Positions 4,722 to 63,632 of a stretch of DNA of 64,000 bases are shown here, piece by piece. Position 1 is the stretch's first letter. The number at the start of each line of letters is the position of its first letter. The notes beneath the pieces are model-generated. The model was given only the letters and a program-made list of their open reading frames with translations. It was not told the origin of the DNA and made no database searches. The translations under genes were made by a program, and so were the position numbers. The stretch is from Thiomicrorhabdus aquaedulcis (GTDB taxonomy: Bacteria; Pseudomonadota; Gammaproteobacteria; Thiomicrospirales; Thiomicrospiraceae). Where the stretch lies: contig NZ_AP018722.1 in assembly GCF_004001325.1 (NCBI RefSeq), positions 1 through 64,000 on the forward strand. The letters run 5' to 3'.

Positions 4722-4735
4722 GACCAGGCCTGGTC
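4722..4735. repeat. Iterated palindrome GACCAGGCCTGGTC, intergenic
   Basis: A perfect 14-bp palindrome just downstream of the recF stop. It is one of 28 copies of the CCAGGCCTGG core in the window. Confidence 0.95.
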
Positions 4736-4804
4736 TAATGCAAAACACGTGCTCATAACGAAATAATCGTCGTATAATCAGTGCCATTAATTTGTTACGG
4801 ATAG

Positions 4805-4818
4805 GTTTCACGTGAAAC
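4805..4818. other. parS-like ParB binding site overlapping the cmoB start
   Basis: GTTTCACGTGAAAC is a perfect 14-bp palindrome matching the inner 14 bases of the bacterial parS consensus TGTTTCACGTGAAACA. The outer pair reads G and A, so the 16-mer has one mismatch. It lies about 5 kb from dnaA, as expected for a segregation centre near the origin. The GTG start codon of cmoB (4812) is inside the site. ParB binding is inference. Confidence 0.85.
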
Positions 4819-5807
4819 ACCACTACACTTCTTTTTGGCCACACCTTAACGACCCCAAACTAAGCGAATGGCAGAGCCAATTACCGGCCTTAATAGACGC
4901 CGCACTGTTGCCCGATGGCAATGGCAATTTGCCGCGTTGGCAGGCGGCGTTGGACAGCTTAAATCAACTGCCGAGCCATCAGCCGCACGCCCTTGACCAG
5001 GCCTGGGTAAGTGCCGGTGACCCAACGACCTTAACGCCCCAACAACATGAACGACTCGAAACCGCATTGCGTGCATTGCACCCTTGGCGTAAGGGGCCGT
5101 TTAAGTTGTTTGATATTGAAATCGACACCGAATGGCACTCGGATTGGAAATGGGATCGTGTGCTGCCGCATTTAGCCCCCTTGCAAGACCAAGCGGTGCT
5201 CGACATTGGCTGTGGCAGCGGCTATCACCTCTGGCGCATGTTGGGACAAGGCGCTCGGTTGGCCATTGGCGTTGACCCAAGCTTGCTGTTTATGAGCCAA
5301 TTTTTGGCGCTCAAACAGTTTATTGGCCAACAACAACCCGCGTACTTTTTGCCCTTAACCCTAGAGCAACTGCCGGTGTCGCCCAAAGGCGGTTTTTTTG
5401 ATACCGTGTTTTCAATGGGCGTTTTGTATCATCGACGCTCGCCCATTGACCATATTTACGAGCTTAAAGCCCAACTTAAACCCGGTGGCCAATTGGTACT
5501 GGAAACCTTAGTCATTGACGAAAAACAGGGGCAATTATTAGTGCCCCAAGATCGCTATGCGCAAATGCGCAATGTCTGGTTTTTACCTTCGGTGCCCGAA
5601 CTCACACGCTGGTTAGAGCGCTGTGGTTTTAGCAACGTGCGCTGTGTCGATTTAAACCAAACCAGCACTGCCGAGCAACGCAGCACCGATTGGATGCAAT
5701 GGAATTCGTTAGAATCGTTTTTAGACCCAAACGACCACAACTTAACCATTGAAGGCCATCCTGCCCCCTTACGCGCGGTGATGTTGTGCAATGTGCCCGT
5801 CGCGTAA
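4812..5807 (+). CDS. cmoB: tRNA U34 carboxymethyltransferase CmoB
   Basis: CmoB transfers a carboxymethyl group from carboxy-SAM to 5-hydroxyuridine at the tRNA wobble position, giving cmo5U. The 331-residue length is normal. The SAM-binding motif is LDIGCGSGYHLWRM, and SMGVLYHRRSP and QDRYAQMRNVW are strongly CmoB-like. The start is GTG, preceded by GGATAGG with normal spacing and lying inside a parS palindrome. CmoA, which makes the cofactor, is not in the window. An in-frame copy of the iterated palindrome (4997-5006) encodes DQAW. Confidence 0.95.
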   Translation: MKHHYTSFWPHLNDPKLSEWQSQLPALIDAALLPDGNGNLPRWQAALDSLNQLPSHQPHALDQAWVSAGDPTTLTPQQHERLETALRALHPWRKGPFKLFDIEIDTEWHSDWKWDRVLPHLAPLQDQAVLDIGCGSGYHLWRMLGQGARLAIGVDPSLLFMSQFLALKQFIGQQQPAYFLPLTLEQLPVSPKGGFFDTVFSMGVLYHRRSPIDHIYELKAQLKPGGQLVLETLVIDEKQGQLLVPQDRYAQMRNVWFLPSVPELTRWLERCGFSNVRCVDLNQTSTAEQRSTDWMQWNSLESFLDPNDHNLTIEGHPAPLRAVMLCNVPVA

Positions 5808-5812
5808 ATAAT

Positions 5813-5826
5813 GAGACCTTTGCACG
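5813..5826. repeat. Solitary GAGACCTTTGCACG end-like repeat
   Basis: This matches the terminal inverted repeat of the MITE-like elements at 25504 and 29071, but no partner end is visible nearby. It is probably a remnant of an element end. Confidence 0.5.
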
Positions 5827-5840
5827 ATATAAACCAACTG

Positions 5841-5852
5841 ACCAGGCCTGGT
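5841..5852. repeat. Iterated palindrome ACCAGGCCTGGT, intergenic
   Basis: A copy in the gap between cmoB and the MoxR gene, about 34 bp after the cmoB stop. Confidence 0.93.
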
Positions 5853-5919
5853 GAAACGATTTTAACCATCTTAAACCGCTGTTAACCCACACCACAGCAT
5901 GATATCTAGGAAGTAGACC

Positions 5920-6963
5920 GTGTTTGAACCCATTGAGCCAAACAAAGAAACAATCCCTAAAAAGGCAATTGAAACAGCCGTTATGCTTGACCCCGCGCAC
6001 CCAGATTTTTTAGTGCAACGATTTCAGGCCTTGCAAGCGCACGTTAATGCACACATTATTGGCCAGCCGCACTTAACACAACGATTGTTAATAGCGCTGT
6101 TATCCGACGGGCATTTATTGGTAGAAGGTCCACCAGGCCTGGCCAAGACCAAAGCCATTAAAGTCTTGGCACAATCCATCGAAGGCCAATTTCATCGCAT
6201 TCAATTCACCCCCGATTTATTGCCCTCGGACATTACCGGTACAGACATTTATCGACCCGAAACGGGTCAATTTGAGTTTCAAAAGGGGCCAATTTTTCAC
6301 AACCTTATTTTGGCCGATGAAATTAATCGCGCGCCCGCCAAAGTGCAATCGGCGCTGCTTGAGGCCATGGCCGAAGGTCAAATAAGTGTCGGCAAACGCA
6401 CCTTGTCGTTAGACCCACTGTTTATGGTGATGGCCACGCAAAATCCATTAGAGCAAGAAGGGACGTATGCCTTGCCAGAAGCGCAATTAGACCGCTTTAT
6501 GCTGCACGTTAACATTGGCTACCCTAACGCACAGGCCGAACACCAAATTTTAGAATTGGTTGAAAACGAAGCGCGCGCACTGAGCCCAGATGAGTTTGAG
6601 CCCATAGCCCAAGAGTCTTTGTTTGACGCACGTCGCGCCATTTTAAATTTGCACATGGCGCAAGCCATCAAAACCTATATTGTCGAATTGGTTATGGCCA
6701 CCCGACAACCGCAACAATACAACGACACACTGGCCAAGCATATTGCCTACGGCGTAAGCCCACGCGCCACCATTGCTTTATCGCGTGGTGCGCGCGCTCA
6801 CGCTTGGTTAAACGGCCGCACTTACGTTAACCCTGACGATGTAACCGCAGTGATTCACGATGTGTTTAGACACCGTTTATTGCTTAACTTTGAGGCGCAA
6901 TCGCAAGGTTTAAGTGTGGACGATGTGGTTAATCAAATTTTAGAACTCGTGCCCGTTACATGA
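5920..6963 (+). CDS. MoxR-family AAA+ ATPase
   Basis: MoxR ATPases act with von Willebrand factor A proteins as chaperone-like machines for protein maturation or envelope stress. This one has 347 residues. Walker A GPPGLAKTK is at about 70-78, Walker B LILADEI at about 129-135, and a sensor region with ATQNPLEQEGTYALPEAQLDR follows. The GTG start has TAGGAAG about 7 bp upstream. It is the first of six co-directional genes forming a Bat-type operon. A palindrome copy at 6133-6142 falls in the Walker A codons, where the PGL residues of GPPGLAK are read from it. Confidence 0.95.
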   Translation: MFEPIEPNKETIPKKAIETAVMLDPAHPDFLVQRFQALQAHVNAHIIGQPHLTQRLLIALLSDGHLLVEGPPGLAKTKAIKVLAQSIEGQFHRIQFTPDLLPSDITGTDIYRPETGQFEFQKGPIFHNLILADEINRAPAKVQSALLEAMAEGQISVGKRTLSLDPLFMVMATQNPLEQEGTYALPEAQLDRFMLHVNIGYPNAQAEHQILELVENEARALSPDEFEPIAQESLFDARRAILNLHMAQAIKTYIVELVMATRQPQQYNDTLAKHIAYGVSPRATIALSRGARAHAWLNGRTYVNPDDVTAVIHDVFRHRLLLNFEAQSQGLSVDDVVNQILELVPVT

Positions 6964-6991: not shown

Positions 6992-7924
6992 ATGAGCACA
7001 GACAACCCCCAACTACTTTACAGCACGCTTGAACCTTTAATGGCATGGCAATTTCAGGTTAAAACGCGAAAATTTGTGGCGCATCAAGCCTTGCAAGCGC
7101 AACAAACCGGAACCCATCACGCCTTGCGTAAAGGCCGAGGCATGAGTTTTAGTGAAGTACGTCAATACCAACCAGGCGACGACATTCGCCATATGGATTG
7201 GCGGGTTACTGCGCGCACCCAAAAACCGCATACCAAAGTATTTATTGAAGAACACGAACGCCCCACTTTGTTGGTGTGCGAACAATCCCCAGCGCTGTTT
7301 TTTGCCTCACAAACCCGCTTAAAAGCCGTGCAGGCGCTTAACATTTGCGCCATTTTAGGATGGGTCGCTTTGGCGCAGCACGATAAAGTAGGCAGTTTAA
7401 GCTTTAATCATCTTAACCAGGCCTGGCAAGCCCCCAAAAACTCACCAACGACATTAATGCACGGTTTACAAAACGCCATTCAGCTGCAAAGCCAACTCAA
7501 CGCTCCGGCGGCCGTGTCGAGTTCTCTTTGGCAAAACGCACTGCAAAAATTAACGCAAATGGTTAAACCCGGCAGCAAAATTTTTTTTGTGGGCGACTTG
7601 CTTAACCTAAATACGACCAGCCTTACACTGTTAAGCCAATTACGAAGACATAACGAACTGGTGGCCATTCACATTGTTGACCCATTAGAACAATCCCTGC
7701 CCAAGCTGGGCTGGTTAAGCTTACAAGCAACACCCGATGCAGATACCGCGCCCATGCGTCTTAACAGTTTTAAAGACAGCACACGCACCGATTACGCCGA
7801 CAGCTATGTGCGCGCTTGGCAAGAGGCTCAAGCACACTGTATTACGTTGGGTATTCCGCTTATACAAATTGCCAACACTGACCATCCATTGCACGCCTTG
7901 CTTGCACACAAAGTGATTCAATAA
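6992..7924 (+). CDS. DUF58 protein of the Bat operon
   Basis: DUF58 proteins accompany MoxR ATPases and VWA proteins; their biochemical role is unsettled. This 310-residue protein contains the family core YQPGDDIRHMDWRVTAR at about 59-75. A C-terminal VWA-like fold is likely, as in the family. No convincing membrane segment is visible. It starts 28 bp after the MoxR gene and is followed 3 bp later by the DUF4381 gene, so it is operonic. An in-frame palindrome at 7417-7426 encodes NQAW. Confidence 0.92.
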   Translation: MSTDNPQLLYSTLEPLMAWQFQVKTRKFVAHQALQAQQTGTHHALRKGRGMSFSEVRQYQPGDDIRHMDWRVTARTQKPHTKVFIEEHERPTLLVCEQSPALFFASQTRLKAVQALNICAILGWVALAQHDKVGSLSFNHLNQAWQAPKNSPTTLMHGLQNAIQLQSQLNAPAAVSSSLWQNALQKLTQMVKPGSKIFFVGDLLNLNTTSLTLLSQLRRHNELVAIHIVDPLEQSLPKLGWLSLQATPDADTAPMRLNSFKDSTRTDYADSYVRAWQEAQAHCITLGIPLIQIANTDHPLHALLAHKVIQ

Positions 7925-7927
7925 CTC

Positions 7928-8443
7928 ATGTCAAATCCAAGCCCTAATCCTGTGCTCACGCCCGAATCGCTTAATGTCCTTAGCCAGTTGCACGACATTG
8001 TGTTGCCACAGGCCGTGGGTTGGTGGCCATTGGCGTTTAGCTGGTGGGTGCTTATTTTTAGCGTGGCTTCAATGCTTATTGGCCTAATTTGGTTTTTTAC
8101 CGATCGCCACAAACGTAATGCGTATCGACGTGAAGCACTGGGCTTATTAAGCAACATTAATAACGATTCGAGCTTAAACGCACATCAAAAAATCTCGGCC
8201 ATTAATCGTCTGCTTAAACAAGTGGCTCTCACAGCCTATGGGCGTCACGCCGTGGCCGTATTAACCGACCAGGCCTGGTGTGATTTTTTGCATCAAAATG
8301 CCCATTACATTAAAGCGCCCGCCACCTTATTAGCGTGCCTTAACCTGGCCTATCAGCCTGTTGTATCCCCCACTGAAAGCCAAGCGGCCTTGATTATTTG
8401 GCACGACTACGCCAAACAGTGGATTTTAGGACACCACCAATGA
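7928..8443 (+). CDS. DUF4381 membrane protein of the Bat operon
   Basis: A 171-residue protein with one strong hydrophobic segment at about 34-56 and a cytoplasmic C-terminal domain, as in DUF4381 proteins found between DUF58 and VWA genes. Its precise role is unknown. Its stop codon overlaps the next ATG (ATGA), indicating translational coupling. The in-frame palindrome at 8269-8278 encodes DQAW. Confidence 0.88.
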   Translation: MSNPSPNPVLTPESLNVLSQLHDIVLPQAVGWWPLAFSWWVLIFSVASMLIGLIWFFTDRHKRNAYRREALGLLSNINNDSSLNAHQKISAINRLLKQVALTAYGRHAVAVLTDQAWCDFLHQNAHYIKAPATLLACLNLAYQPVVSPTESQAALIIWHDYAKQWILGHHQ

Positions 8444-9495: not shown

Positions 9496-9496
9496 C

Positions 9497-11490
9497 ATGT
9501 TTGCCATCGAATTTTTACGTCCATGGTGGTTTTTAGGCGCTCTGCCGGTGGCCTGGATACTTTGGCAGGCCTGGCAAGCTCATCGCCAACAAGGCGCATG
9601 GCATAAAGTCATTGCCCCACCGTTTAGAACGCTGTTATTGGGTAACAACCAAACCAACGGATTGGACGGTTTTGGCCACATAGCGCTTATGGGTTTGGGG
9701 GGGCTTTGGTTGTTAATGTTAGTGGCACTGGCCGGACCTACCTTAAAAACCGTTGAAATTCCGGCCGAAAAATCCCAACAAGGCACCGTGATTTTGCTGG
9801 ATTTATCGCTGTCCATGCTGGCCGACGATGTGTCGCCCAATCGTTTAACACGTGTAAAATTTAAGCTCACCGACCTGCTCACGCTGTACCCAGAACAACC
9901 CACTGGCTTGGTGGTATACGCCGGCTCAACTCACACGCTTGCGCCCATCTCTGAAGACAATCAAACGCTGTTAGGCTTACTGCCCGCTCTGGATCCCACC
10001 ATTATGCCCAGTTACGGCTCTGACCCGCTTAACGGATTTAAACACGCCAAAGCACTGTTAAACGGTGCACACGTTCAACAAGGGCATATTATTTGGATTA
10101 CCGACGATTTAGAACCCGAACAAATCGCCCCCCTAAGCGATTGGCTTAATCGCCAATCTTTTAGAGTCAGTGTCTTGGCCGTGGGCACAGACAAGGGTGG
10201 CGCGGTAAATATTCCCAATTTTGGGCTGCTTAAAGACGCCCAAAACAACGTAGTATTGCCTCCGCTGGCGTGGACACAACTCGAACAACTGGCGCAAAAT
10301 ACCCAGGCCAAACTCACTCCACTTACGCTAAACGACCGCGACATACAAACCTTGCGCCCCGCACACCGTGCCGGTACAAAACCAACCGATGCCGCCAAAG
10401 ACTTAGACAACAAAACCGTACAACATCCGCTTGACGAAGGCAGTGCGTTACTGTTTTTATTGATTCCTTTGGCCGCACTCATCTATCGCCGTGGCTGGAT
10501 TTTTAGCCTAGGTCTAAGCCTGTTTTTGCCCATTTTTGGCGGTTTGAGTTTAAGCGCACTGCCCAATACCGCCTTTGCTCAAACCGAGTTACCTAGCTTT
10601 ACCGAGGTGTTTAAATCGGCCGACCAACAAGCCTACCAGGCCTGGCAAAAACAAAATTTTGAAGCCGCCCAAGCGCAATTTGAACACCCACAATGGCGCG
10701 CCAGCAGTTTGTATCGCTTAGGCCAATTTGAGCAAGCCGCTAAATTATTTGCGCAAGATAGCACGGCGCAAGGTTGGTTTAATCAAGGCAATGCATTGGC
10801 CAAAGCGGGTCAATTAGACCCAGCCATAACCGCTTACCAAACCAGTTTAAGCCTGCAACCCAATTTTAAAGAGGCCGCCGACAATTTAGCCTTGGTTGAG
10901 CAGTTACTTAAAACACAATCTCAAGAACAAGCAGCAGACAAACCAGCGCCAACACCGCCCAGCACAGCACCTGAGCAAAAATCTGAGCCGACATCCGAAC
11001 CGACATCAAAGCCAACGTCTGAACAGCAACCCGAGCCAAAAAGCAACGATGCTAAAGACACTGACGAAAAAACAGTGACAAAAACGATGACACAAACACA
11101 GAAAATAGTCAGAATAAAGACGATGGCGATGATAAGAGCAAAAACACAAACCAGGGTGATGACGACACCTTAGCAAACCCGCAGACGGGTCAATCCACCG
11201 CCGATACACCTGATGCACAGACCCTAAACGACAATCAAACCAGCGATGAAAATGCCGCCGCGCAGTTACCAGCGCAATCTTTAGCCGACGATTCAAAACA
11301 ATCCAATGCAAAAAATGAAGCTGAAAAAAGCCAACAATCCGAACAAAATCAAGCCACCGAAGCCTGGTTAAGGCAAATTCCTAACCAACCCGAGCTGTTT
11401 TTAAAACGTAAATTTGATTATCAATACCAACAACAAACCCAAAAAAATACCGCGCAGCCACACACCAAACCCAACACCAAAGATTGGTAA
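9497..11490 (+). CDS. VWA plus TPR protein (BatB/BatC-like), frameshifted
   Basis: The open frame from ATG 9497 runs to 11173 and encodes an N-terminal membrane segment, a VWA domain with MIDAS DLSLSM, a further membrane helix and a TPR pair (WFNQGNALAKAGQLDPAI). It then degenerates into a basic out-of-frame tail. Switching to the -1 frame in the A6 run at 11067-11072 restores a Gln/Asn/Asp-rich linker and the conserved BatB/C ending EAWLRQIPNQPELFLKRKFDYQY, stopping at 11490, 6 bp before batD. So either one A is missing or the ribosome shifts frame. Palindrome-related copies at 9566 and 10636 encode QAW. Confidence 0.85.
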
Positions 11491-11496: not shown

Positions 11497-13377
11497 ATGC
11501 ACCGCCAAAAGAGTCCACTTATGCTATTTGTACCCGTTATAAACCGACTGCATACTGTTATTTTCTCTGCCCATTTGCGCTTTAAAGTACGCCAATGGAT
11601 AGCCGTAGCACTGTTAAGCATTGCACCGCTTAGCCACGCTAAAACCATTACGGTGCAAACCGATCGCCAAGTAATCGAAATGGGCGATGTAATCACGCTC
11701 GTGGTTGAAACCGATTTTCAAACCACCGGCACCCATTTAGATCTAACCGTGCTTGAAGATCAATTTACGGTGCTAACGCAACAACGCAGTAACAATATTC
11801 AAATTATTAACGGGGATTTTAAATCCAGTACCCGCTGGCAAATTCAACTCACTCCCAAACAAATAGGCGAACTACAAGTACCGCCTCTAAGCATCGAAAA
11901 CGTCACCAGCACACCCTATACTCTTACCGTGCGCCCCGTCGCTAAAGCGGCTGACAGTAACTTAGAACCGTTTTTCTTAACCGCCGATCTCAGTCAAAAC
12001 CAGGTTTACGTTCAACAACAAGTGTTGTATACCCTGCGCTTTTTTTACCAAGGCCGTTTTCTAGACGGAGGCATTAGACCGCCGGTCTTTAACCATGCGC
12101 AAGTAACCCCAATAAGCGATCAAACTGTATACACCAAACAACTCAATGGCCAAAACTACACTGTGTACGAATGGGTTTACGCATTGCATCCCCAAAAAAG
12201 TGGTCAACTTGACATTGCCCCACCCATGTTTAATGGTCAAATTCAGTTGCAAGGTAGACAAAAGCAGGTGCAAATCTTTGCCAAACCGCTTAGTTTAAAC
12301 GTCTTACCCGAACCCCCAAGTTACGCGCAAAACACCCAAAACAGTTGGTTGCCTGCCAGTCAAATCACGCTTGACCAGGCCTGGTCAACCCTGCCCAACA
12401 CACTTTATGTAGGCGACACAGTTAACACCACCTTAACCTTACAAGCCAACGGACTCACAGCCAATCAACTGCCTGATGCAACAAAACTAACCCAACTGTT
12501 TCGCGCAAACATGCCAGAGGCGCTTAAAATCTACACCGAACAACCCAGCACTCAAAACCAAGTGTCTGCTAATGGTGTCAGCAGTCAATGGCAAGTACAG
12601 CAAACGCTAATGGCTACCGCGCCAGGAACGTTTACCCTGCCCGAGCGCAGTCTAAACTGGTGGAATACTCAAACTAATCAACTGCAAAGTGCCACAATTC
12701 CGGCCAAAACCATCACCATTTTGCCGGCCAAAAACACGGTTCAAACAGCCATTCCCGCCGCTCAAGATACAACGATTAATGCACAAACCAACACTCAAAC
12801 CAATCCAACACCGGACACGTCTGCCGCTGTAGATAAAAAAGACGATGCACTTATCCCTGCCAAATCCATAGACTTTTGGCAAATAATTGCGTTGCTTGCG
12901 CTGATTTTATGGGGAGTAACCTTGGTGGCAGGGGCGTTGCTATGGCGAAAATTGAGCCACAAACAGCCCTCTAAAATAGCAGATGGTACGGATACATTAC
13001 AGTATGAAATGGCGCAAAACACAGAACGCAACACGTCATCTGACTGGTGTACGTTAGCGCCCAATTTATTTTACGCTCGCCTACGCCACACCCTGCAAAA
13101 CGACTATGGCATCACCGACTTAACCAGACTTAACGCTTTACCCTTGTTTAAAAACAGCACGCTAAACACCTCATTACCGGTGTTAATAAACGCATTAGAG
13201 GCGCATCTATTCAATCAAGCGCCTTTGGACAACGATTGCCAAAAGAAAATTTGCGCGGTGCTTAAAGAATGGACTAAAACTACAAAAAAACTAAACAAAC
13301 CAAACAAGACCAACTCACCTAACTCGTTAAACTCATCGCCCAGCCAGCTTAAAAAGCTGTATGGCCAAAGCGATTAA
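11497..13377 (+). CDS. batD: BatD-like membrane protein
   Basis: BatD proteins are large, membrane-anchored and mostly periplasmic, and are encoded with BatA/B. This 626-residue example has a hydrophobic signal segment ending near SHA, then a long beta-rich periplasmic region. A C-terminal membrane helix (FWQIIALLALILWGVTLVAG) and a cytoplasmic tail follow. Start choice is uncertain: ATG 11497 sits 6 bp after the preceding stop, but ATG 11521 would give a more typical signal peptide. The palindrome at 12373-12386 is in frame and encodes DQAW. This is the last gene of the operon. Confidence 0.88.
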   Translation: MHRQKSPLMLFVPVINRLHTVIFSAHLRFKVRQWIAVALLSIAPLSHAKTITVQTDRQVIEMGDVITLVVETDFQTTGTHLDLTVLEDQFTVLTQQRSNNIQIINGDFKSSTRWQIQLTPKQIGELQVPPLSIENVTSTPYTLTVRPVAKAADSNLEPFFLTADLSQNQVYVQQQVLYTLRFFYQGRFLDGGIRPPVFNHAQVTPISDQTVYTKQLNGQNYTVYEWVYALHPQKSGQLDIAPPMFNGQIQLQGRQKQVQIFAKPLSLNVLPEPPSYAQNTQNSWLPASQITLDQAWSTLPNTLYVGDTVNTTLTLQANGLTANQLPDATKLTQLFRANMPEALKIYTEQPSTQNQVSANGVSSQWQVQQTLMATAPGTFTLPERSLNWWNTQTNQLQSATIPAKTITILPAKNTVQTAIPAAQDTTINAQTNTQTNPTPDTSAAVDKKDDALIPAKSIDFWQIIALLALILWGVTLVAGALLWRKLSHKQPSKIADGTDTLQYEMAQNTERNTSSDWCTLAPNLFYARLRHTLQNDYGITDLTRLNALPLFKNSTLNTSLPVLINALEAHLFNQAPLDNDCQKKICAVLKEWTKTTKKLNKPNKTNSPNSLNSSPSQLKKLYGQSD

Positions 13378-13416: not shown

Positions 13417-13428
13417 ACCAGGCCTGGT
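13417..13428. repeat. Iterated palindrome ACCAGGCCTGGT between convergent genes
   Basis: It lies in the 69-bp gap between the 3' ends of batD and aas. No ordinary terminator hairpin is visible in this gap. Confidence 0.93.
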
Positions 13429-15663: not shown

Positions 15664-15727
15664 TGCGACTCCTTCTTGATTCTTTTCGTAACCTTATATG
15701 TATTATGGATAGAAAACGTGATTTTTG

Positions 15728-15757
15728 ACCACGAAAACACTAAGGCATGAAGTTTTT
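15728..15757 (+). repeat. Island-flanking repeat, left copy
   Basis: About 30 bp starting ACCACGAAAACACTAAGG. It matches, in the opposite orientation and with roughly 23 of 29 positions, the sequence at 19339-19367. The two copies bracket the AT-rich block holding the chemoreceptor and peroxidase genes. Confidence 0.5.
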
Positions 15758-15827
15758 AAAAAAATTCAACTACTTTGAGGCCTTTGAATATTAACTGCTC
15801 ATTTATCTAACAACCTGTTAGATTAAA

Positions 15828-29178: not shown

Positions 29179-29190
29179 ACCAGGCCTGGT
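29179..29190. repeat. Iterated palindrome ACCAGGCCTGGT in a divergent promoter region
   Basis: It lies between the flavin reductase and CBS genes, whose starts diverge. The rest of this 350-bp gap holds the MITE-like element and AT-rich sequence; I see no other gene. Confidence 0.93.
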
Positions 29191-31698: not shown

Positions 31699-31712
31699 GA
31701 CCAGGCCTGGTC
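31699..31712. repeat. Iterated palindrome GACCAGGCCTGGTC in the leuA/lrp divergent region
   Basis: A perfect 14-bp palindrome about 45 bp upstream of leuA and 118 bp upstream of the Lrp gene. By position it could act in regulation, but it belongs to the genome-wide family. Confidence 0.95.
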
Positions 31713-37030: not shown

Positions 37031-37042
37031 ACCAGGCCTGGT
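37031..37042. repeat. Iterated palindrome ACCAGGCCTGGT upstream of recQ
   Basis: It lies 32 bp before the recQ start and 50 bp after the nitroreductase stop. Confidence 0.93.
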
Positions 37043-43421: not shown

Positions 43422-43432
43422 CCAGGCCTGGT
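43421..43432. repeat. Iterated palindrome ACCAGGCCTGGT abutting the RND pump stop
   Basis: The A of the stop codon TAA is the first base of the palindrome. It lies between convergent genes. Confidence 0.93.
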
Positions 43433-45621: not shown

Positions 45622-45633
45622 ACCAGGCCTGGT
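45622..45633. repeat. Iterated palindrome ACCAGGCCTGGT downstream of dsbA
   Basis: It lies between the dsbA terminator and the acetolactate synthase start on the same (minus) strand. Confidence 0.93.
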
Positions 45634-50695: not shown

Positions 50696-52347
50696 CTAAG
50701 CAGAGTGTAAATACCGCATTAACACTCTGTTTAGTTCGTTCATTTCGATGGGTTTTGCCAATACATCACTAAATTCTTCAGCCAAATAGCGCTCACGGTC
50801 ACCCTTTAAGGCATTGGCGGTTAAGGCGATAATCGGGGTTGCCTGTTGCAAGCTTTCTGTTTGATACGCTCTAATAAGCTCACACGCTTGCTCACCACCC
50901 ATAATGGGCATGTTTATGTCCATAAAAATTAAATCGTATTGAGTTGCGGCCTGCTTAACTTTATCAACGGCTTGTTGGCCATTTTCGGCCACGTCTGGAA
51001 CCAGCTTCAATTTGCTTAAAATGGCCTGCATCAGCATTTGATTTACTTTATTGTCTTCTACCAATAAAATTTGTTTACCCGCGTAATGGCTTTGTAATTT
51101 GGTGTGTTCAACAGCGCTTAAACGTTGGGTGCTTTTACCTGGGGTTTGAGTCACCTTAGCGTGCCAGCTAAAAGAGAAGCAACTGCCTTTATTAAGCTCA
51201 CTTTCTATTTTAAGCTCACCACCGTGCAGAGCAATTAAGCGCTTGCTAATGGCTAACCCTAGCCCTGTTCCACCGTATTCTCGGGAGGTAGACGAGTCTG
51301 CTTGAATAAACGGCTCACCAATAAACGCTAGTTTTTGTTGAGCAATGCCAATTCCGGTATCTTCTACTGCTATCTTTAACCAGGCCTGGTCATCTTTAAG
51401 TTCTAAACAACTTAAGGTAAAAGTAATTTTGCCATGATGAGTGAATTTAACGGCATTGCTGATTAAGTTACTCACAATTTGCTTAAGTCGTAACGCATCG
51501 CCTAATAGATAAGCAGGTAAGCTGTTAAGGGTTTTAAATTCAATGTAACTGTCATTTTCTTGGGCTTTAGACTGAAACAACTCAACCAGCATTGAAAACG
51601 TGTCAATTAAATGAAAGGTTTGCTCATCTAGTGCCAACTTACCGGCATCCATTTTAGAAAAGTCTAGAACCTCATTGATAATGCCTAACAACGAATCGGA
51701 GCTGTGCTCTACTATTTTTAAATAATGTTGTTGTTGTTCATCCAGTAAGGTCGATTTAAGCTGATTTAAAAAACCAATAATACCGTTAAGTGGGGTACGA
51801 ATTTCGTGTGACATATTGGCCAAAAAAAGATCGCGAGCCGCTTGAGCTCTTTCTAAGTCCATTAATGTGGTTTGGAGTTTTTTCTCTTGCTCAACTAACT
51901 GTTTATTGGCGTGGCATGACTGAATAGAGGTGGCTAATTTATCGCACACCGCACCTAAATCTTTTAAAAAAATTTGATCCAAAGGTTCTAAACAAACCAG
52001 CGTGAGCCAGCCTTGATTTTTAAGCATAAAAACATATTGATAACGGTTTTGTGCATCACAAAAATGGCTTATATAGCCACTTTCTAGTTTTTTGAAGGTG
52101 CTTTTTTAAGTAAAAAATCAGCTGTAAGCCTCTGTAAGTTTTGTTGATATTCGGGGGTTAAACCTCTGCGCGGAATGGCCAGTAGGGCATTATGTTGCGG
52201 GTCAACAACGGCTATCATGACACCGTCAAGTTTGCGTAAAATTACTTTTAAAGAGTCTTTAAGCAATTCGTTAAGGTCTAATGTATTGCCAATGACCATC
52301 GCCATTTCATACAAAATGTGTACCCGTGAGATGGTTTTAAAATACAT
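50696..52347 (-). CDS. GAF-like hybrid histidine kinase/response regulator, frameshifted
   Basis: The minus-strand frame from ATG 52347 encodes a GAF-like sensor start (MYFKTISRVHILYEMAMVIGN) and stops at 52084. Adding one A in the A6 run (complement of 52102-52107) rejoins it to the frame running to 50696, through STFKKLESGYISHFCDAQNR. The restored protein of about 550 residues has HisKA (FLANMSHEIRTPLNGIIGF), HATPase_c (EYGGTGLGLAIS) and a receiver (LIFMDINMPIMGG). It follows the FIST gene by 25 bp. The palindrome at 51379-51390 encodes DQAW. Without the correction the kinase part would lack its sensor. Confidence 0.85.
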
Positions 52348-55322: not shown

Positions 55323-55558
55323 CCAACATTACCTGTTTTTTTACTTATAAAATTCGCATTATCATAGCCAGATAATAGTTCAAATTCAATAGTTTATTTA
55401 AATAATTCTTTTTGTTCGTATTTTATAAGAGGAAAAAATGGTCTAAAAAGGATGGGTATTTGGTGTTGTGTATCAAAGCCGTGTGGCTTTGCGGCCTATG
55501 TGAAATTAAGCCAAATTTGAGGTTAACCAGGCCTGGTATGTTGCTTAGTCTTTTTAAA
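55323..55558. other. Intergenic region with one palindrome, no gene supported
   Basis: This is the gap between the EAL gene start and the 3' end of the Fic gene. A 68-codon plus-strand frame crosses it but has no ribosome site or recognisable sequence, so I do not call it. Confidence 0.5.
55526..55537. repeat. Iterated palindrome ACCAGGCCTGGT downstream of fic
   Basis: It lies 22 bp beyond the stop of the minus-strand Fic gene. Confidence 0.93.
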
Positions 55559-56868: not shown

Positions 56869-56880
56869 ACCAGGCCTGGT
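56869..56880. repeat. Iterated palindrome ACCAGGCCTGGT downstream of polA
   Basis: It lies 20 bp past the polA stop and upstream of the Fic gene on the same strand; the flanks extend it slightly (T...A). Confidence 0.93.
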
Positions 56881-56899: not shown

Positions 56900-59761
56900 T
56901 TAATGCGCCTCATCCCAGTTTTTTCCCTGGCCGATTTCGACAATCAGCGGTACGTTTAGGGTTAAGGCCGATTCCATAAGTTCTTTAATGTGCGGTTTTA
57001 CCGCGTCTACTTGGTGTTCGGCCACTTCAAACACCAATTCATCGTGTACTTGCATGAGCATGGTGATGTCAAATTCTGCGCGATTCAGCCAAGGTTCAAT
57101 TTGAATCATCGCCAATTTAATAATGTCGGCGGCGGTGCCTTGCATGGGCGCGTTAATGGCGGTGCGTTCGGCGTACTGTCTTAGCTGACCGTTGCGCGCG
57201 TTAATGTCGGGTAAATACAGGCGGCGACCCATTAGAGTTTCAACATAGCCTACACTTTTGGCGGCCGATTTGGTGTTTTCCATGTACGCCAATACGCCGG
57301 GGTAACGGGCAAAATACAAATCAATATACTCTTGCGCCAAGCCGCGCGATACGCCTAATTGATTGGCTAAACCAAACGCCGACATGCCGTAAATTAACCC
57401 AAAGTTAACCGCTTTGGCACTGCGACGTTGTTCGGTGGTGACTGCGTCTAAGGGAACACCAAAAATTTCGGCGGCGGTGGCGCGGTGAATGTCTTGGGCG
57501 TGTGAAAACGCATTGACCAGGCCTGGGTCGTTTGACAAGTGCGCCATAATGCGCAGTTCAATTTGCGAATAATCGGCGGCGACCAGCACATAACCAGGCC
57601 TGGCAATAAACGCTTGGCGTATGCGTCGCCCTTCGGCCGAGCGAATGGGGATGTTTTGTAGGTTGGGTTCGGTGGACGAGAGCCGTCCAGTGGACGTGAC
57701 CGCTTGTTGATAGCTGGTATGAACGCGCCCCGTATTGGGGTCAATTTGTTTGGGCAGTGAGTCAGTGTAGGTTGATTTAAGTTTGGCCAAACTGCGGTAT
57801 TCTAAAATAAGGGTGGGCATTTCATGGCCGCGCTCGGCCAGTTCGGCCAGCACGGGTTCGGCGGTAGACGCTTGACCTTTGGGGGTTTTTTTAAGAATGG
57901 GCAGTTGCAGGTTTTCAAACAAAATCACTTGCAGTTGTTTGGACGAGTTTAAATTAAACACCTGGCCGGCAATCAGGTGCGCTTGTTGTTCTAATTGGGT
58001 CAGTTTGTGGCTGAGCTCAACGCTTTGTTTGGCCAGCATGTCGGTGTCCAGCAACACGCCGTTGCGTTCCATGTGCGCCAAAATGGGCATTAATGGCATT
58101 TCAATGTCGCTAAACACGCTTTGTAAGCTGGGTTGTGCGCTTAATTGTGGCCAAAGTGTTTGATGTAGGCGCAAGGTAATGTCGGCGTCTTCGGCGGCGT
58201 AGGCGGCGGCTGTGGCGATGTCAATCTGATTAAACGTGACTTGTTTAACGCCTTTACCAGCGATTTCGTCAAAATGAATAGTGCGATGGTTTAAATATTT
58301 TAGCGCCAAATCGTCCATGTTGTGCCGTGTGGCGACGCTGTTTAGGCAATACGATTCAAGCATGGTGTCAAAGCGCATGCCTTGTAAATCAATGCCATGG
58401 TTTTGCAAAACATGCCAGTCGTATTTAAGATTTTGACCGCATTTGGCGTGCGCTGGGCTTTCTAAAATGGGTTTTAGGGCGTTTAACACTTCGGTTAAGT
58501 CTAATTGGGGTGGGGCATCGGGGTAATCGTGCGCCAGGGGAATATAGCAGGCCTGGTTACCGTCTTGCGTGGGGTGTTTAACCGCCAAACAAATGCCAAC
58601 AATCTTGGCCTGCAAGGTGTTAAGCGAGGTGGTTTCGGTGTCCAGGGCAAACAGGTCGGCGGCGCGAATGCGCTCTAACCAGACCGCCAGTTGTGCGGCG
58701 CTTAATATGGTTTCGTAAGGTTCGGTGCGTTCGGCGGCGTGGGTGGGTTGAGAAGCGTGCAAGGGTTGAGAGGGCAGAGAAGCATACTCAGCAGACAAGG
58801 CGGGTAACGCCCCAGCGGATTTTTTTTGCACCGTTTGGCTGTGGGCTTTTACGCCATTGTTTTTGGTAAATGGCGCATGGCCGGCCAATACCTGGTTGAG
58901 CCAGGTTTTTAAATCGTATTGCGCAAACAGCTCGGCCAAGCGCGTCATGTTGGGCGGTTGGCGGGTAATGTCGTGCAAATGCACGGGCAAATCGCAATCG
59001 GTTTTAATGGTGGTCAGTTGGCGCGATAACGCTAATTGGTCTAAATTATTGCGTAAATTTTCGCCAATTTTTCCGCCAATCATCGAGGCGTTTTCAACCA
59101 AGCGGTCAATGTTTTGAAACGAGTTAAGCCATTTGGCGGCGGTTTTAGGCCCGCAATTGGGAATGCCTGGAATGTTGTCTGAGGTGTCGCCCACCAGAGC
59201 TAAATAGTCAATAATTTGATTGGGGCGCACGCCGTATTTTTGCAACACCGATTCGGGCGTGGCCAAGGTGTCGTTCATGGTGTTAATGAGCGTAATGTGC
59301 TCGTTAACCAGTTGCGCCATGTCTTTGTCGCCGGTTGAAATTAAGGTGTCGTGCTGCGCCAAAGTGGCCTGATGCGCCAGCGTGCCCATCACATCGTCGG
59401 CTTCTACGCCGTCTATAATTAGCAGTGGCAACCCCAAGGCTTGCACAATTTGATGAATCGGCTCAATTTGACTGCGCAGTTCGTCGGGCATGGGCGGGCG
59501 GTGCGCTTTGTAGTCGGCGTACAGGTCGTGTCTAAAGTTTTTGCCTTTCGCGTCAAACACCACCGCCATTTTTTCAGGCTGATACTGCTCTAACAATTTA
59601 CCCAACATATTAATGACCCCAAAAATTGCCCCAGTGGCTTGCCCTTGGCTATTGGTCAGCGGCGGCATAGCGTGAAACGCTCTAAACAGATACGACGAGC
59701 CATCCACCAAAATAAAAGGGCTGTTGGGGTTGGTAATAAGGTGTAAATTGGAATCCGTCAT
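56900..59761 (-). CDS. polA: DNA polymerase I
   Basis: Repair and Okazaki-fragment polymerase of 953 residues with all three domains. The 5'-3' exonuclease occupies about 1-300 (FRAFHAMPPLTNSQG, GVEADDVMGTLA). The 3'-5' exonuclease has ALDTETTSLNT and EDADITLRL, so proofreading should be active. The polymerase has motif A ADYSQIELR, motif B RRSAKAVNFGLIYGMSAFG and motif C QVHDELVFEV. Two palindromes 77 bp apart (57517-57526 and 57594-57603) are read as DPGLV and ARPGY in the polymerase domain. A near-copy at 58548 is read as NQAC. Confidence 0.97.
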   Translation of the reverse strand: MTDSNLHLITNPNSPFILVDGSSYLFRAFHAMPPLTNSQGQATGAIFGVINMLGKLLEQYQPEKMAVVFDAKGKNFRHDLYADYKAHRPPMPDELRSQIEPIHQIVQALGLPLLIIDGVEADDVMGTLAHQATLAQHDTLISTGDKDMAQLVNEHITLINTMNDTLATPESVLQKYGVRPNQIIDYLALVGDTSDNIPGIPNCGPKTAAKWLNSFQNIDRLVENASMIGGKIGENLRNNLDQLALSRQLTTIKTDCDLPVHLHDITRQPPNMTRLAELFAQYDLKTWLNQVLAGHAPFTKNNGVKAHSQTVQKKSAGALPALSAEYASLPSQPLHASQPTHAAERTEPYETILSAAQLAVWLERIRAADLFALDTETTSLNTLQAKIVGICLAVKHPTQDGNQACYIPLAHDYPDAPPQLDLTEVLNALKPILESPAHAKCGQNLKYDWHVLQNHGIDLQGMRFDTMLESYCLNSVATRHNMDDLALKYLNHRTIHFDEIAGKGVKQVTFNQIDIATAAAYAAEDADITLRLHQTLWPQLSAQPSLQSVFSDIEMPLMPILAHMERNGVLLDTDMLAKQSVELSHKLTQLEQQAHLIAGQVFNLNSSKQLQVILFENLQLPILKKTPKGQASTAEPVLAELAERGHEMPTLILEYRSLAKLKSTYTDSLPKQIDPNTGRVHTSYQQAVTSTGRLSSTEPNLQNIPIRSAEGRRIRQAFIARPGYVLVAADYSQIELRIMAHLSNDPGLVNAFSHAQDIHRATAAEIFGVPLDAVTTEQRRSAKAVNFGLIYGMSAFGLANQLGVSRGLAQEYIDLYFARYPGVLAYMENTKSAAKSVGYVETLMGRRLYLPDINARNGQLRQYAERTAINAPMQGTAADIIKLAMIQIEPWLNRAEFDITMLMQVHDELVFEVAEHQVDAVKPHIKELMESALTLNVPLIVEIGQGKNWDEAH

Positions 59762-59847
59762 TTGTTGGCCTGTTATGGTAAAATTTGTGGCTTTATTTTA
59801 CTCAAAAACCCACCGACTATTTCACCCCATTTAAGAGACTTTACGCT

Positions 59848-60807
59848 ATGTCAGTCTATACTGTTGTTGATGAAACCCAATTAATCGCCTTTTTAAGCGA
59901 TTACACCGTGGGCACGTTGCATTCGTTTGAAGGCATTAGCGCAGGCATTGAAAACACCAATTACTTTGTTAACACCCAAAAAGACGGCCAAATACAGCGT
60001 TTTGTGTTGACCATTTTTGAGCACCACAGCTTTGCCGAACTGCCCTATTTTTTAGACATTATGGCGTTTATGGCCGAGCATCAAATCCCGACCGCGCACC
60101 CAATTGCCAATCAACAAGGCGAGTATTTGCAAGCGCTGTATGGTAAACCGGCCGCTTTGGTAGAACGGTTGCAGGGTCAGGGCGTTGAACAACCGTCGGT
60201 GGTGCAGTGTGGCGTGATGGGCGAGCAGTTGGCGCGGTTTCACAACGCTGGGCAAGGCTATCAAGCCCAGCGCCACAACGACCGAGATTTAGAGTGGATG
60301 GACGCAACGTTTGAGCTGATTACGCCGTTTTTACCGCAAGACGAGGTGGAATTGATTGCCACCGAATTGGCATTTCAGGCCGATATTTGTTGGGAGACCT
60401 TGCCTCAAGGCGTGATTCACGCCGATCTGTTTTGCGATAACGCATTATTTGATGGAGACCAATTGTCGGGCATTATTGATCTGTATTACGCCTGCAACGC
60501 GGCGCTGTTGTACGACTTGGCGGTGATGGTCAACGACTGGTGTCGAATCAATTCATCCAATCCGGCCGACATTGAATTTGATGAGCAAAAACAGACGCAC
60601 ATGCTTAACGCGTACCAAGCTCAACGCTCACTCAGTCCGGCAGAGCACCAGGCCTGGTCGGCCGCATTGCGCATGGCGGCGTTGCGCTTTTTCTTGTCAC
60701 GCTTAAAAGACAAACACATGCCGCGCGAAGGTGAGATGACGCAAATAAAAGACCCTAATGTGTTTAAAGCGGTGTTGTTATTGCGTCGTCAAGGGTCGGC
60801 GGTTTAA
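59848..60807 (+). CDS. thrB: Homoserine kinase, ThrB type 2 (APH fold)
   Basis: It phosphorylates homoserine in threonine synthesis. I placed the start at ATG 59848 (MSVYTVVDETQL), where family members begin; the frame is open 63 bp further up. The roughly 319-residue protein belongs to the aminoglycoside-phosphotransferase fold. HSFEGISAGIENTNYFV is the family N-terminus, GVIHADLFCDNALF holds the catalytic Asp, and SGIIDLYYACNA is the metal-binding motif. The palindrome at 60647-60658 encodes HQAW. It is divergent from polA, as often seen in related bacteria. Confidence 0.95.
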   Translation: MSVYTVVDETQLIAFLSDYTVGTLHSFEGISAGIENTNYFVNTQKDGQIQRFVLTIFEHHSFAELPYFLDIMAFMAEHQIPTAHPIANQQGEYLQALYGKPAALVERLQGQGVEQPSVVQCGVMGEQLARFHNAGQGYQAQRHNDRDLEWMDATFELITPFLPQDEVELIATELAFQADICWETLPQGVIHADLFCDNALFDGDQLSGIIDLYYACNAALLYDLAVMVNDWCRINSSNPADIEFDEQKQTHMLNAYQAQRSLSPAEHQAWSAALRMAALRFFLSRLKDKHMPREGEMTQIKDPNVFKAVLLLRRQGSAV

Positions 60808-61973: not shown

Positions 61974-62001
61974 TTAAGTTGACCAGGCCTGGTCAACTTA
62001 A
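61974..62001. repeat. 28-bp extended palindrome containing GACCAGGCCTGGTC
   Basis: The core palindrome is extended symmetrically by TTAAGTT on one side and AACTTAA on the other, giving a perfect 28-bp inverted repeat with no loop. It lies between the stop of the CpxP-like gene and the thioredoxin-like gene start on the minus strand. It could act as a hairpin attenuator or terminator. Confidence 0.93.
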
Positions 62002-62017
62002 GGCAACTTAAGTTTGC

Positions 62018-62485
62018 TTATTGGCCTTTATTAAACGCCACAATGGCCATTAGTTCGGCGTATTGTTGTGGGGTTAAGATGGCTTTTAACCCAAATACGC
62101 ATTCTATGGTGAGTTGCATGCGTTTTTTGTCTATTTCACCCAGTTCGTCAATCAGCTTTAAACTGGTGGCTTGCTGGCCGTCTTTGCCCAGGGTTTCTTC
62201 TTGCAGTTGGGTTTTTAGGTTGTGGTATTGGGCGTTAATGTATTCAACTTGCGAAAAATTGGTGCGCGCAATTTGGCGCACTTGGGTGATTTGTTCTGGC
62301 GTTAACTCAAGGGTGTCTAAATTATCGATGACCACGGGCATTAACACCGCCACGGGTGAGGATGGTTTAAAGTCTTGAGCCGCTTGAGCATGGGCTAAGT
62401 TGGACTGCAGAGCCAAGCTACTTAGAAGGGTGACGCTCAATAGGCAAGTCTTTAGTTTTCTGATGCGTACAAGGGAATTTAACAT
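62018..62485 (-). CDS. Periplasmic LTXXQ-type protein (Spy/CpxP-like)
   Basis: A small helical periplasmic protein, about 155 residues from the ATG at 62485, which has an AGGAG site upstream. Ten further codons upstream are open but lack one. A signal peptide ends AHA (near residue 34). The mature part has LELTPEQITQVRQI and LKAILTPQQYAELM, two LTP-Q motifs as in Spy/CpxP chaperones. It probably buffers envelope stress or metal, which is inferred. It is a single gene between the palindrome and the SMR gene. Confidence 0.8.
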   Translation of the reverse strand: MLNSLVRIRKLKTCLLSVTLLSSLALQSNLAHAQAAQDFKPSSPVAVLMPVVIDNLDTLELTPEQITQVRQIARTNFSQVEYINAQYHNLKTQLQEETLGKDGQQATSLKLIDELGEIDKKRMQLTIECVFGLKAILTPQQYAELMAIVAFNKGQ

Positions 62486-62540
62486 GGCGGTTCTCCTAGT
62501 TTTGTTTTGCAACACGAATCGTTAACGGGTAAAAGTTTTG

Positions 62541-62858
62541 TTAAGTATGACTTAATTTAAGTCCGATAATGCCGGCAATAATTAATAACACGCTGATGAT
62601 TCGTCCGGCGGAAATGGGTTCGGCCAGCATAATGATACCAAAAATGACTGTACCCACCGCGCCCACACCCACCCAAATGGCGTAAGCGGTGCTGGCCGGC
62701 AGGCTTTTCATGGCAAGGCTGAGCAGCCACACGCTTAACACCATAGCCACCAGCGTTCCCAGGGTCGGCCAAAGCCGCGTAAAGCCTTCGGTGTATTTTA
62801 AGCCCACCGCCCAAACCACTTCAAACAGACCCGCTAAGATTAAAATAGCCCAAGCCAT
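62541..62858 (-). CDS. sugE: Small multidrug resistance family transporter (SugE/Gdx-like)
   Basis: A 105-residue protein with four membrane helices. [32 protein letters not shown] carries the essential Glu in the first helix and matches SugE/Gdx guanidinium exporters more than Emr[25 protein letters not shown] is also typical. Its start lies 3 bp after the VIT-type gene stop on the same strand, so it has no leader space for a guanidine riboswitch. Substrate is inferred. Confidence 0.9.
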
Positions 62859-62861
62859 CGC

Positions 62862-63581
62862 TTAACCCGCCGTGCCAAACAGTAAACCCACATAAGTGGT
62901 TAAGCCCATCGCCAAACTTCCCCACACAAACATTCTTAACGCCCCTTTGCCCATTGGCGCACCACCGGTTTTGGCGGCCAATGCCCCCAAAGCGGCCAGC
63001 AATACCAGCGAACTGGCGGCAATGATGATGCCTAAGTTTTGCATGGGCAAAATCGCCACCAAGCCCACAGGAACCGATGCCCCAGCCACAAACGATGCCG
63101 CCGACGCCAACGCCGCTTGCAACGGTTTAGCGCTGTGGGTTTCGGTTAAGCCCAGCTCGTCACGGGCGTGTGCGCCAAGGGCGTCGTGTTGCATCAGTTC
63201 GATGGCGACTTGTTGTGCAGTCGCGGGGCTGACGCCGCGTTGTTGGTAAATTAAGGCTAATTCGGCCGTTTCGGTTTCCCAGTCGTCTTCTAACGCCTTT
63301 TTTTCAATGGCCAAATCGGCTTTTTCGGTGTCGGATTGCGAGCTGACCGACACGTATTCGCCTGCCGCCATAGACAGTGCACCGGCCACCAATGCCGCCA
63401 CCGCCACCAGCAAAACGTGCTCTTTAGACGCGCCAGCGGCCAGCACGCCCACCAACAAACTCACCACCGAAATAATGCCGTCGTTGGCGCCTAATACGGC
63501 CGCACGCAACCAACCCATGCGGTGGCTAAAGTGGGCGGTGGTTAGGTGTTGGTCGTGCATTTCTGGGGTGTAATGGGGCAT
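62862..63581 (-). CDS. VIT1/CCC1-family iron/manganese transporter
   Basis: An integral membrane protein of about 239 residues from ATG 63581, which has GGAGT upstream; an in-frame ATG at 63593 is less well placed. Five or so helices are visible. HRMGWLRAAVLGANDGIISVVSLLVGV and LSMAAGEYVSVSSQSDTEKADL are the family signatures. A cytoplasmic helical metal-binding stretch rich in Glu follows (EKKALEDDWETETAEL). Homologues move Fe2+ or Mn2+ out of the cytoplasm. It is coupled to the SMR gene. Confidence 0.9.
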   Translation of the reverse strand: MPHYTPEMHDQHLTTAHFSHRMGWLRAAVLGANDGIISVVSLLVGVLAAGASKEHVLLVAVAALVAGALSMAAGEYVSVSSQSDTEKADLAIEKKALEDDWETETAELALIYQQRGVSPATAQQVAIELMQHDALGAHARDELGLTETHSAKPLQAALASAASFVAGASVPVGLVAILPMQNLGIIIAASSLVLLAALGALAAKTGGAPMGKGALRMFVWGSLAMGLTTYVGLLFGTAG

Positions 63582-63612
63582 AACGTACTCCAAAATAGAT
63601 TGTTTATAATTG

Positions 63613-63632
63613 ACCAGGCCTGGCAGGCCTGG
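63613..63632. repeat. Tandem fused palindrome copies
   Basis: ACCAGGCCTGGC runs straight into AGGCCTGGT, giving two overlapping AGGCCT cores spaced 10 bp apart. It lies between the 3' end of the oxygenase gene and the VIT-type gene. Confidence 0.93.

What the first reader, a model, noticed from the sequence alone, without database searches (positions are those of the whole stretch)
4722..63632. A highly iterated palindrome, CCAGGCCTGG, spread through the whole window
I count 28 exact copies of the 10-mer, many extended to GACCAGGCCTGGTC. At this base composition about 0.03 copies would be expected by chance in 64 kb (my rough estimate). Twelve copies are intergenic and sixteen are inside genes. 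The core is a StuI-type AGGCCT flanked by overlapping CCAGG/CCTGG. It behaves like the cyanobacterial HIP1 palindrome: dispersed, not clustered, and tolerated in coding sequence. Candidate roles are a DNA-uptake or recombination signal, the target of a methyltransferase, or a nucleoid protein site. No candidate binding protein is encoded here.
Basis: partly seen in the sequence, partly recalled or inferred. Interest (0 to 1): 0.87.

Follow-up and report, generated by a model that had tools for sequence, protein, structure and literature searches.

The report
Genome-wide palindrome with clade-specific dialects
A ten-letter DNA palindrome recurs about every 3,000 letters along a sulfur-oxidising bacterium's chromosome, relatives carry altered versions of it, and it most resembles the short self-recognition signals some bacteria use when taking up DNA, although what reads it is not known.

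Summary
Confirmed: 28 exact CCAGGCCTGG in the window (0.04 expected), 16 genic, 12 intergenic. The genome, a Thiomicrorhabdus, holds 856, about 330 times an order-2 Markov expectation. Across 62 family genomes the count is either hundreds or near zero. Several low-count relatives carry other versions ("dialects"): ACCGGCCGGT (1,025 in G006, 0-15 in the other 61), GCAGGCCTGC, an ACAGGCCTGT type, and an asymmetric ACCCGGCCTGTTGAGTTTT that also forms inverted, terminator-like pairs. The palindromic dialects share A-rich flanks about 10 bp from the centre.

Sites are held in place: where the amino acids match, codons match in 25 of 28 comparisons with motif-bearing relatives, 0 of 7 with motif-free ones. 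Genes of three DNA-methyltransferase families do not track the motif.

Best reading: an uptake-signal-like self mark that works like DUS/USS dialects. Against it: a clear PilM (canonical type IVa pilus) in only 1 of 62 genomes, no receptor known, ComEC common in motif-free species too, and known uptake signals are not palindromes. A dedicated chromosome-binding protein remains a real rival. No report of the motif was found in the papers searched.

The parts
4724..4733 (.). motif copy, intergenic, after recF; inside GACCAGGCCTGGTC 4722-4735
4997..5006 (.). motif copy, in cmoB ORF 4812-5807
5842..5851 (.). motif copy, intergenic
6133..6142 (.). motif copy, in ORF 5920-6963 (MoxR-type AAA ATPase)
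7417..7426 (.). motif copy, in ORF 6992-7924
8269..8278 (.). motif copy, in ORF 7928-8443
10636..10645 (.). motif copy, in ORF 9458-11173
12375..12384 (.). motif copy, in ORF 11497-13377
13418..13427 (.). motif copy, intergenic between convergent ORFs
22228..22237 (.). motif copy, in ORF 20719-22809; exact in G005
29180..29189 (.). motif copy, intergenic
31701..31710 (.). motif copy, intergenic
37032..37041 (.). motif copy, intergenic
38648..38657 (.). motif copy, in ORF 37075-38919; exact in G005 and G029
39664..39673 (.). motif copy, in ORF 39052-40284
41232..41241 (.). motif copy, in ORF 40287-43421
42381..42390 (.). motif copy, in ORF 40287-43421; exact in G005
43422..43431 (.). motif copy, intergenic, directly after the stop of ORF 40287-43421
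45623..45632 (.). motif copy, intergenic
47998..48007 (.). motif copy, in ORF 47620-49692
51380..51389 (.). motif copy, in ORF 50696-52027
55527..55536 (.). motif copy, intergenic
56870..56879 (.). motif copy, intergenic
57517..57526 (.). motif copy, in ORF 56900-59761
57594..57603 (.). motif copy, in ORF 56900-59761; exact in G005, G007 and G012, one mismatch in G029
60648..60657 (.). motif copy, in ORF 59785-60807
61983..61992 (.). motif copy, intergenic; inside TTGACCAGGCCTGGTCAA
63614..63623 (.). motif copy, intergenic

Best explanation
A family-wide, fast-evolving self-DNA mark that works like the uptake sequences (DUS, USS) of Neisseriaceae and Pasteurellaceae. Inferred mechanism: a DNA receptor of a competence or pilus machine reads the centre GGCC with one or both CTG-type arms and the A/T tract one helical turn away; DNA carrying the mark is taken up and recombined preferentially, so copies accumulate by point mutation plus biased recombination, are kept at the same places, and change together when the receptor changes, which gives the dialects. 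Shown: the excess, the dialects and their clade pattern, the flanks, fixed positions, coding cost, placement downstream of genes, inverted pairs in one dialect, depletion on the second contig. Inferred: the receptor, the uptake, the drive.
For: Dialects: CCAGGCCTGG in many genomes, ACCGGCCGGT 1,025 times in G006 only, GCAGGCCTGC in G021, a CAGGCCTG core leaning to ACAGGCCTGT in G003 and G027, asymmetric ACCCGG|CCTGTTGAGTTTT in G002, 15 copies in 61,386 bases. They fall by clade on a dnaA-region tree. A at 9.5-10.5 bp from the dyad in both CCAGGCCTGG and CCGGCCGG sites, genic and intergenic. Three inverted pairs 24-25 bp apart in G002 fold as hairpins of -31 to -43 kcal/mol, as DUS and USS pairs do (passages). 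[quoted passage not shown] Codons identical at 25 of 28 amino-acid-conserved sites in motif-bearing relatives, 0 of 7 in motif-free ones, background 2-12%. Intergenic sites: convergent 3.14, tandem 1.66, divergent 0.89 per kb; 28 of 37 tandem sites nearer the upstream stop. Second contig: 5 copies in 96,830 bases, 34 expected. Of 2.9 million viral contigs 4 hold TTACCAGGCCTGGTAA and 0 TTGACCAGGCCTGGTCAA. ComEC and prepilin peptidase matches in 29 of 29 motif-bearing genomes at least 90% complete.
Against: Known uptake signals are not palindromes; most dialects here are. A strong PilM_2 match exists in 1 of 62 genomes, G035, which has no motif; no PilQ match passes its cut-off in any of 62, and the best one in G000 is GspD of type II secretion. 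ComEC is also in 19 of 22 genomes at least 90% complete without a known dialect, so it does not discriminate. No receptor was identified and no competence report was found. Most motif-free genomes were checked for other dialects only in samples or not at all.
Confidence: 0.45

Rival explanations
1. A dedicated chromosome-binding protein (nucleoid or chromosome-domain organiser, or a self mark for a repair or defence nuclease) binds the roughly 24-bp palindrome as a dimer and bends the DNA; the dialects reflect co-evolution of its DNA-reading surface.
For: Symmetric footprint beyond the 10-mer with A/T tracts near one turn and, in intergenic sites, AT maxima near 15 and 24 bp from the dyad; near-uniform density round the chromosome; conserved positions; canonical type IVa pilus PilM lacking in 61 of 62 genomes.
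Against: Rapid turnover of hundreds of sites into new dialects, growing asymmetry in one clade and a fully asymmetric dialect are unexpected for a dimer. Sites are sparse between divergent genes, which argues against a promoter-bound regulator but not against an organiser. No protein found.
Confidence: 0.28
2. A DNA methyltransferase with or without methylation-directed repair creates and keeps the sites, as proposed by Elhai for cyanobacterial HIPs.
For: The own genome encodes a cytosine-5 methyltransferase (L007) whose best solved relative is M.HaeIII over the full catalytic and target-recognition region, 75-400, whereas M.HhaI matches 75-254 only; so GGCC, the core of every dialect seen, could be its target (inference).
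Against: PF00145 over the cut-off in 5 of 10 genus genomes with at least 100 copies and in 10 of the other 22; relatives of L007, 70-77% identical, sit in G008 (1 copy) and G025 (0 copies). PF01555: 2 of 10 and 7 of 22. PF02086: 3 of 10 and 3 of 22. G006, with 1,025 copies of its dialect, has none of the three. GGCC as such is below expectation in G000, 2,077 against 2,463. Type I, Eco57I-like and other families were not searched.
Confidence: 0.08
3. Sites are neutral leftovers of biased mutation or of a small mobile element.
For: High density in presumably unconstrained convergent intergenic sequence.
Against: No conserved sequence beyond the palindromic flanks; 16 of 28 window sites lie inside genes; identical positions at 72-73% nucleotide identity, 18 of 20 relatives' sites shared with the own genome, controls 0.5-1.8%; the motif encodes 69 of 75 QAW and 61 of 83 PGL tripeptides in own ORFs, a coding cost.
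Confidence: 0.07

Closest known systems
DNA uptake sequence (DUS) dialects of Neisseriaceae (Frye 2013, PMC3630211, passages seen)
   Same: Hundreds to thousands of copies, clade-specific variants around a shared short core, a variant that differs by an inserted base, inverted pairs at terminators, intergenic and coding copies.
   Different: DUS is asymmetric; DUS uptake and the receptor ComP are shown experimentally; here most dialects are palindromes and no receptor or uptake is shown.
Uptake signal sequence (USS) types of Pasteurellaceae (Redfield 2006, PMC1626085; ComN paper 2025, PMC12616744; passages seen)
   Same: Core plus AT-rich segments at helical spacing, subclade-specific types, more perfect than near-perfect copies, origin by mutation; the G002 dialect (core then one T tract) looks most alike.
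   Different: Different core; AT tracts on both sides in the palindromic dialects; USS uptake is shown experimentally.
Highly iterated palindromes (HIP1 and alternate HIPs) of cyanobacteria (Elhai 2015, PMC4390886; abstract and sections 2.5.3 and part of 3.4 read)
   Same: Over-represented GC-rich palindrome, tolerated in genes, replaced in some species by another palindrome.
   Different: Elhai finds a matching methyltransferase for the over-represented sites; here none tracks the motif. Here there is an asymmetric dialect and a longer footprint; other phylum.

Membership tests
HIP (highly iterated palindrome) | Short palindrome over-represented genome-wide, in and between genes | tested here: met
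   856 in 2.54 Mb; 233 against 0.6 in 600 kb; 16 genic and 12 intergenic in the window
HIP (highly iterated palindrome) | Cognate DNA methyltransferase present where the palindrome is abundant | tested here: not met
   PF00145, PF01555, PF02086 in 32 genus genomes; other methyltransferase families not searched
DNA uptake sequence (DUS/USS) | Hyper-abundant short motif with clade-specific variants sharing an inner core | tested here: met
DNA uptake sequence (DUS/USS) | Inverted pairs at terminators | tested here: met
   G002 only: 3 pairs among 15 copies in 61 kb; close pairs are not in excess in the own genome (8 gaps under 100 bp, 5.7 expected)
DNA uptake sequence (DUS/USS) | Asymmetric, directional motif | tested here: not met
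   Own dialect is a palindrome; only the G002 dialect is asymmetric
DNA uptake sequence (DUS/USS) | Type IV pilus based transformation machinery | tested here: inconclusive
   ComEC and Peptidase_A24 in 29 of 29 motif-bearing genomes at least 90% complete; strong PilM in 1 of 62; Tad cluster in G000 and G056, MshL-like pilus cluster in G052
DNA uptake sequence (DUS/USS) | Preferential uptake of DNA with the motif; cognate receptor | not testable with these tools
   needs a wet experiment
REP/BIME elements | Extragenic only, mobile, with RAYT transposase | tested here: not met
   16 of 28 window sites genic; RAYT not searched
Chi recombination hotspot | Non-palindromic, strand-biased octamer acting on RecBCD | tested here: not met
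   the own motif is a perfect palindrome; the definition of Chi is recalled

The most novel reading that the evidence does not exclude
A third, independent lineage with a self-DNA uptake code, in sulfur-oxidising chemolithoautotrophs without the canonical type IVa pilus, whose signal is palindromic ancestrally and has drifted into an asymmetric, USS-like form in one clade, so that the birth of directionality in an uptake signal can be followed step by step.
Probability: 0.33. Interest if true: 0.9.

Novelty: new variant of a known kind. Interest (0 to 1): 0.72.

Why it matters
Hyper-abundant genomic motifs with known function are few, and the role of HIP1 is still debated. Here one bacterial family offers a natural experiment: ancestral-looking motif, several dialects, a palindrome-to-asymmetric series and apparent losses among close relatives, many in cultured strains. 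If it is an uptake code, sequence-specific DNA uptake would extend to a third family and to a different pilus type. If it is a chromosome protein site, it would be an unusually dense and fast-evolving one. Either way the motif shapes the proteome: most QAW and PGL tripeptides in the sampled genes are encoded by it.

Tried and rejected
Methyltransferase target as cause: rejected for lack of association; the HaeIII-like enzyme of the own genome is told as evidence for it. Single mechanism by loss of competence: ComEC and prepilin peptidase do not separate motif-bearing from motif-free genomes. PilQ first looked like a type IV pilus marker missing in motif-rich G037, G052, G056 and G060; two searches showed that the strong match in G000 is GspD, so that search says little about pili beyond giving no match over the cut-off. 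Transcription factor site: disfavoured by scarcity between divergent genes. RNA element: no Rfam match in the window. Plasmid relatives: no match for window 20001-40000. Other dialects: none stood out in samples of G009, G010, G031, G030, G038, G044, in a pooled set of MAG loci (G017-G019, G023-G025), or in short loci of G008, G020 and G022; G004 was seen in one 19-kb locus. G013 shows AGGCCTGT 7 times in 24 kb against 0.6, possibly another dialect, not pursued.

Limits: codon comparisons reuse the same own sites against several genomes and are not independent. ORFs in scripts are simple non-overlapping open frames, not gene calls. The EM orientation makes halves unequal even for symmetric sites (baseline difference -0.1 to 1.3 bits in five CCAGGCCTGG genomes), and for G002 the orientation was fixed by the core. 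The tree is a quick one from 2.6 kb, with G006 on a long branch and G030 missing.
Full report
What is there. CCAGGCCTGG occurs 28 times in the window against 0.04 in shuffles; 16 copies lie in ORFs and 12 between them (ORFs). The 14-mer GACCAGGCCTGGTC occurs 4 times and the 12-mer ACCAGGCCTGGT 18 times. The whole genome has 856 copies and 0 of the reversed control, about 333 times an order-2 expectation scaled from a 444-kb sample. In 600 kb of chromosome 233 copies are seen against 0.6 to 29 expected for Markov orders 2 to 5. Copies are spread evenly: 141 in 340 contiguous kb, gaps close to exponential (KS p = 0.12), slightly more even than Poisson. The second contig, 96,830 bases, has 5 where 34 would be expected.

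The organism. DnaA relatives name the genus Thiomicrorhabdus; the own genome matched no named record. Handles were matched to names where dnaA loci agreed, for example G012 = Milos-T2, G001 = T. arctica, G003 = T. chilensis, G002 = T. cannonii, G027 = strain zzn3. Handles of other genera were not matched; that g3 and g6 are Hydrogenovibrio and Thiomicrospira is inference, but named loci of both genera carry the motif (5 and 8-9 copies in about 21 kb in Hydrogenovibrio SC-1, Thiomicrospira Kmv17 and T. microaerophila).

Distribution. In 62 family genomes: genus g1, 10 of 32 genomes have at least 100 copies (106-856), 5 have 15-44, 17 have 0-8; g3, 7 of 11 have 367-677 and 4 have 0-1; g6, 9 of 9 have 263-815; g7, 346 in its one genome; g2, g4 and g5, 0-5 in nine genomes.

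Dialects. K-mer scans of stretches from low-count genomes showed replacement motifs. G006 has ACCGGCCGGT, 1,025 copies genome-wide and 0-15 in the other 61 genomes, with 0 CCAGGCCTGG. G021 has GCAGGCCTGC, 25 in 121 kb, within 54 CAGGCCTG (1.6 expected). G003 and G027 have 47 and 45 CAGGCCTG (3.6 and 3.0 expected) with ACAGGCCTGT the commonest palindromic form. G002 has an asymmetric form ACCCGG|CCTGTTGAGTTTT, 15 copies in 61,386 bases, plus one in a 3.7-kb locus of G016; its T tract, 10-13 bp from the centre, is on one side only. Three inverted pairs of it, 24-25 bp apart, fold into hairpins of -30.9, -39.4 and -43.3 kcal/mol ending in T runs. The left and right halves become less equal from CCAGGCCTGG genomes to G021 to G003 and G027, with the caveat that the method itself makes halves unequal. 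On a quick dnaA-region tree G021, G026, G003, G027, G002 and G016 form one clade (SH-aLRT 98), the CCAGGCCTGG genomes another (81) that also contains a motif-free MAG subclade and G013, and G006 groups with motif-free species on a long branch.

Footprint. Flanks are not random. In CCAGGCCTGG sites (139 genic, 114 intergenic, pooled from five genomes) A peaks 9.5-10.5 bp from the dyad and T at 7.5; in CCGGCCGG sites of G006 (26 genic, 17 intergenic) A again peaks at 10.5 although the core is two bases shorter. Intergenic sites show further AT maxima near 15 and 24 bp. A type II methyltransferase target would not need this.

Placement. Intergenic density is 2.4 to 12.5 times genic density in the eight motif sets examined. 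In 340 own kb convergent intergenic sequence has 3.14 sites per kb, tandem 1.66, divergent 0.89; 28 of 37 tandem sites are nearer the upstream stop codon. This is where a site does least harm and is not a promoter pattern. Inside genes the motif is costly: it encodes 69 of 75 QAW and 61 of 83 PGL tripeptides in own ORFs, 12 of 12 and 20 of 37 in G005, but 1 of 11 and 0 of 18 in four motif-free genomes.

Conservation. At 72-73% nucleotide identity 18 of 42 own sites in alignable sequence are exact in four motif-bearing relatives, and 18 of 20 relatives' sites are exact in the own genome; controls of 8-of-10 GC 10-mers give 0.5-1.8%. At codon level, where the three amino acids are conserved, the codons are identical in 18 of 20 comparisons with motif-bearing Thiomicrorhabdus and 7 of 8 with motif-bearing other genera, in 0 of 7 with motif-free genomes, background 2-12% (Fisher p = 2e-5, not independent because own sites recur). 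In the genomes with other dialects 0 of 32 own sites are exact, but 7 of 32 keep CAGGCCTG.

What reads it. Methyltransferases: see the rivals. Uptake machinery: ComEC (PF03772) in 56 of 62 genomes, prepilin peptidase in 59 of 62; all 29 genomes at least 90% complete with any dialect have both. Among 22 genomes of that completeness without a known dialect, 19 have ComEC; the three without are G016, G030 and G050. Not all of the 22 were sampled for other dialects, and G016 may carry that of G002. A strong PilM match exists only in G035 (the weak matches elsewhere look like FtsA or MreB, untested). No PilQ match passes its cut-off. G000 has type II secretion genes and a Tad cluster, G056 a Tad cluster, G052 an MshL-like pilus cluster. 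So filaments that could serve uptake exist, but not the canonical one.

Against what is known. Elhai 2015 (abstract, section 2.5.3, part of 3.4) ties cyanobacterial HIPs to methyltransferases, not supported here. Frye 2013 (passages) describes eight DUS dialects that follow phylogeny, share a CTG core, include a one-base insertion and form inverted pairs. Redfield 2006 (passages) and the 2025 ComN paper (passages) describe USS types with AT-rich segments. The 2018 work of Xu and co-workers on HIP1 selection is recalled only; it was not held. Searches for this motif or for uptake sequences in these genera found nothing relevant (listings only); a spaced-motif survey does not mention it (passages). 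The library lacks most subscription journals.

Verdict. I commit to an uptake-signal-like self mark at 0.45, a chromosome-binding protein at 0.28, methyltransferase-driven at 0.08, neutral or mobile at 0.07, with the rest unassigned.

Noticed in passing
L149 (G000:C1:84001-104000), about 13792-19817: A CRISPR-like array with 72 occurrences of GGATTGAAAC or its complement (repeat rich in CCCCCCGCGGG).
   Followed up: no
G000:C1:119433-128963: A 3,177-codon open frame, GC about 50%, inside the longest motif-free gap of the first 340 kb (14.2 kb).
   Followed up: no
L028, L003 (G013): AGGCCTGT 7 times in 24 kb against 0.6 expected, with 1 CAGGCCTG: possibly a further dialect.
   Followed up: partly
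L208-L211 (G038 stretches): A repeat with CCTAGCCGCGGAGAGTGGAC, about 26 copies in 80 kb, dominates the k-mers of this motif-free genome.
   Followed up: no
L035-L040, L226, L227, L229 (MAG clade G017-G019, G023-G025): Runs of eight C are 30 against 0.8 expected in 101 kb.
   Followed up: no
G000:C1:743279-744253 (L007): A cytosine-5 methyltransferase with a helix-turn-helix-like start, closest solved relative M.HaeIII; related genes in G008, G011, G014 and G025.
   Followed up: partly
window 43450-43505: Four copies of a 14-base tandem repeat in an intergenic gap.
   Followed up: no
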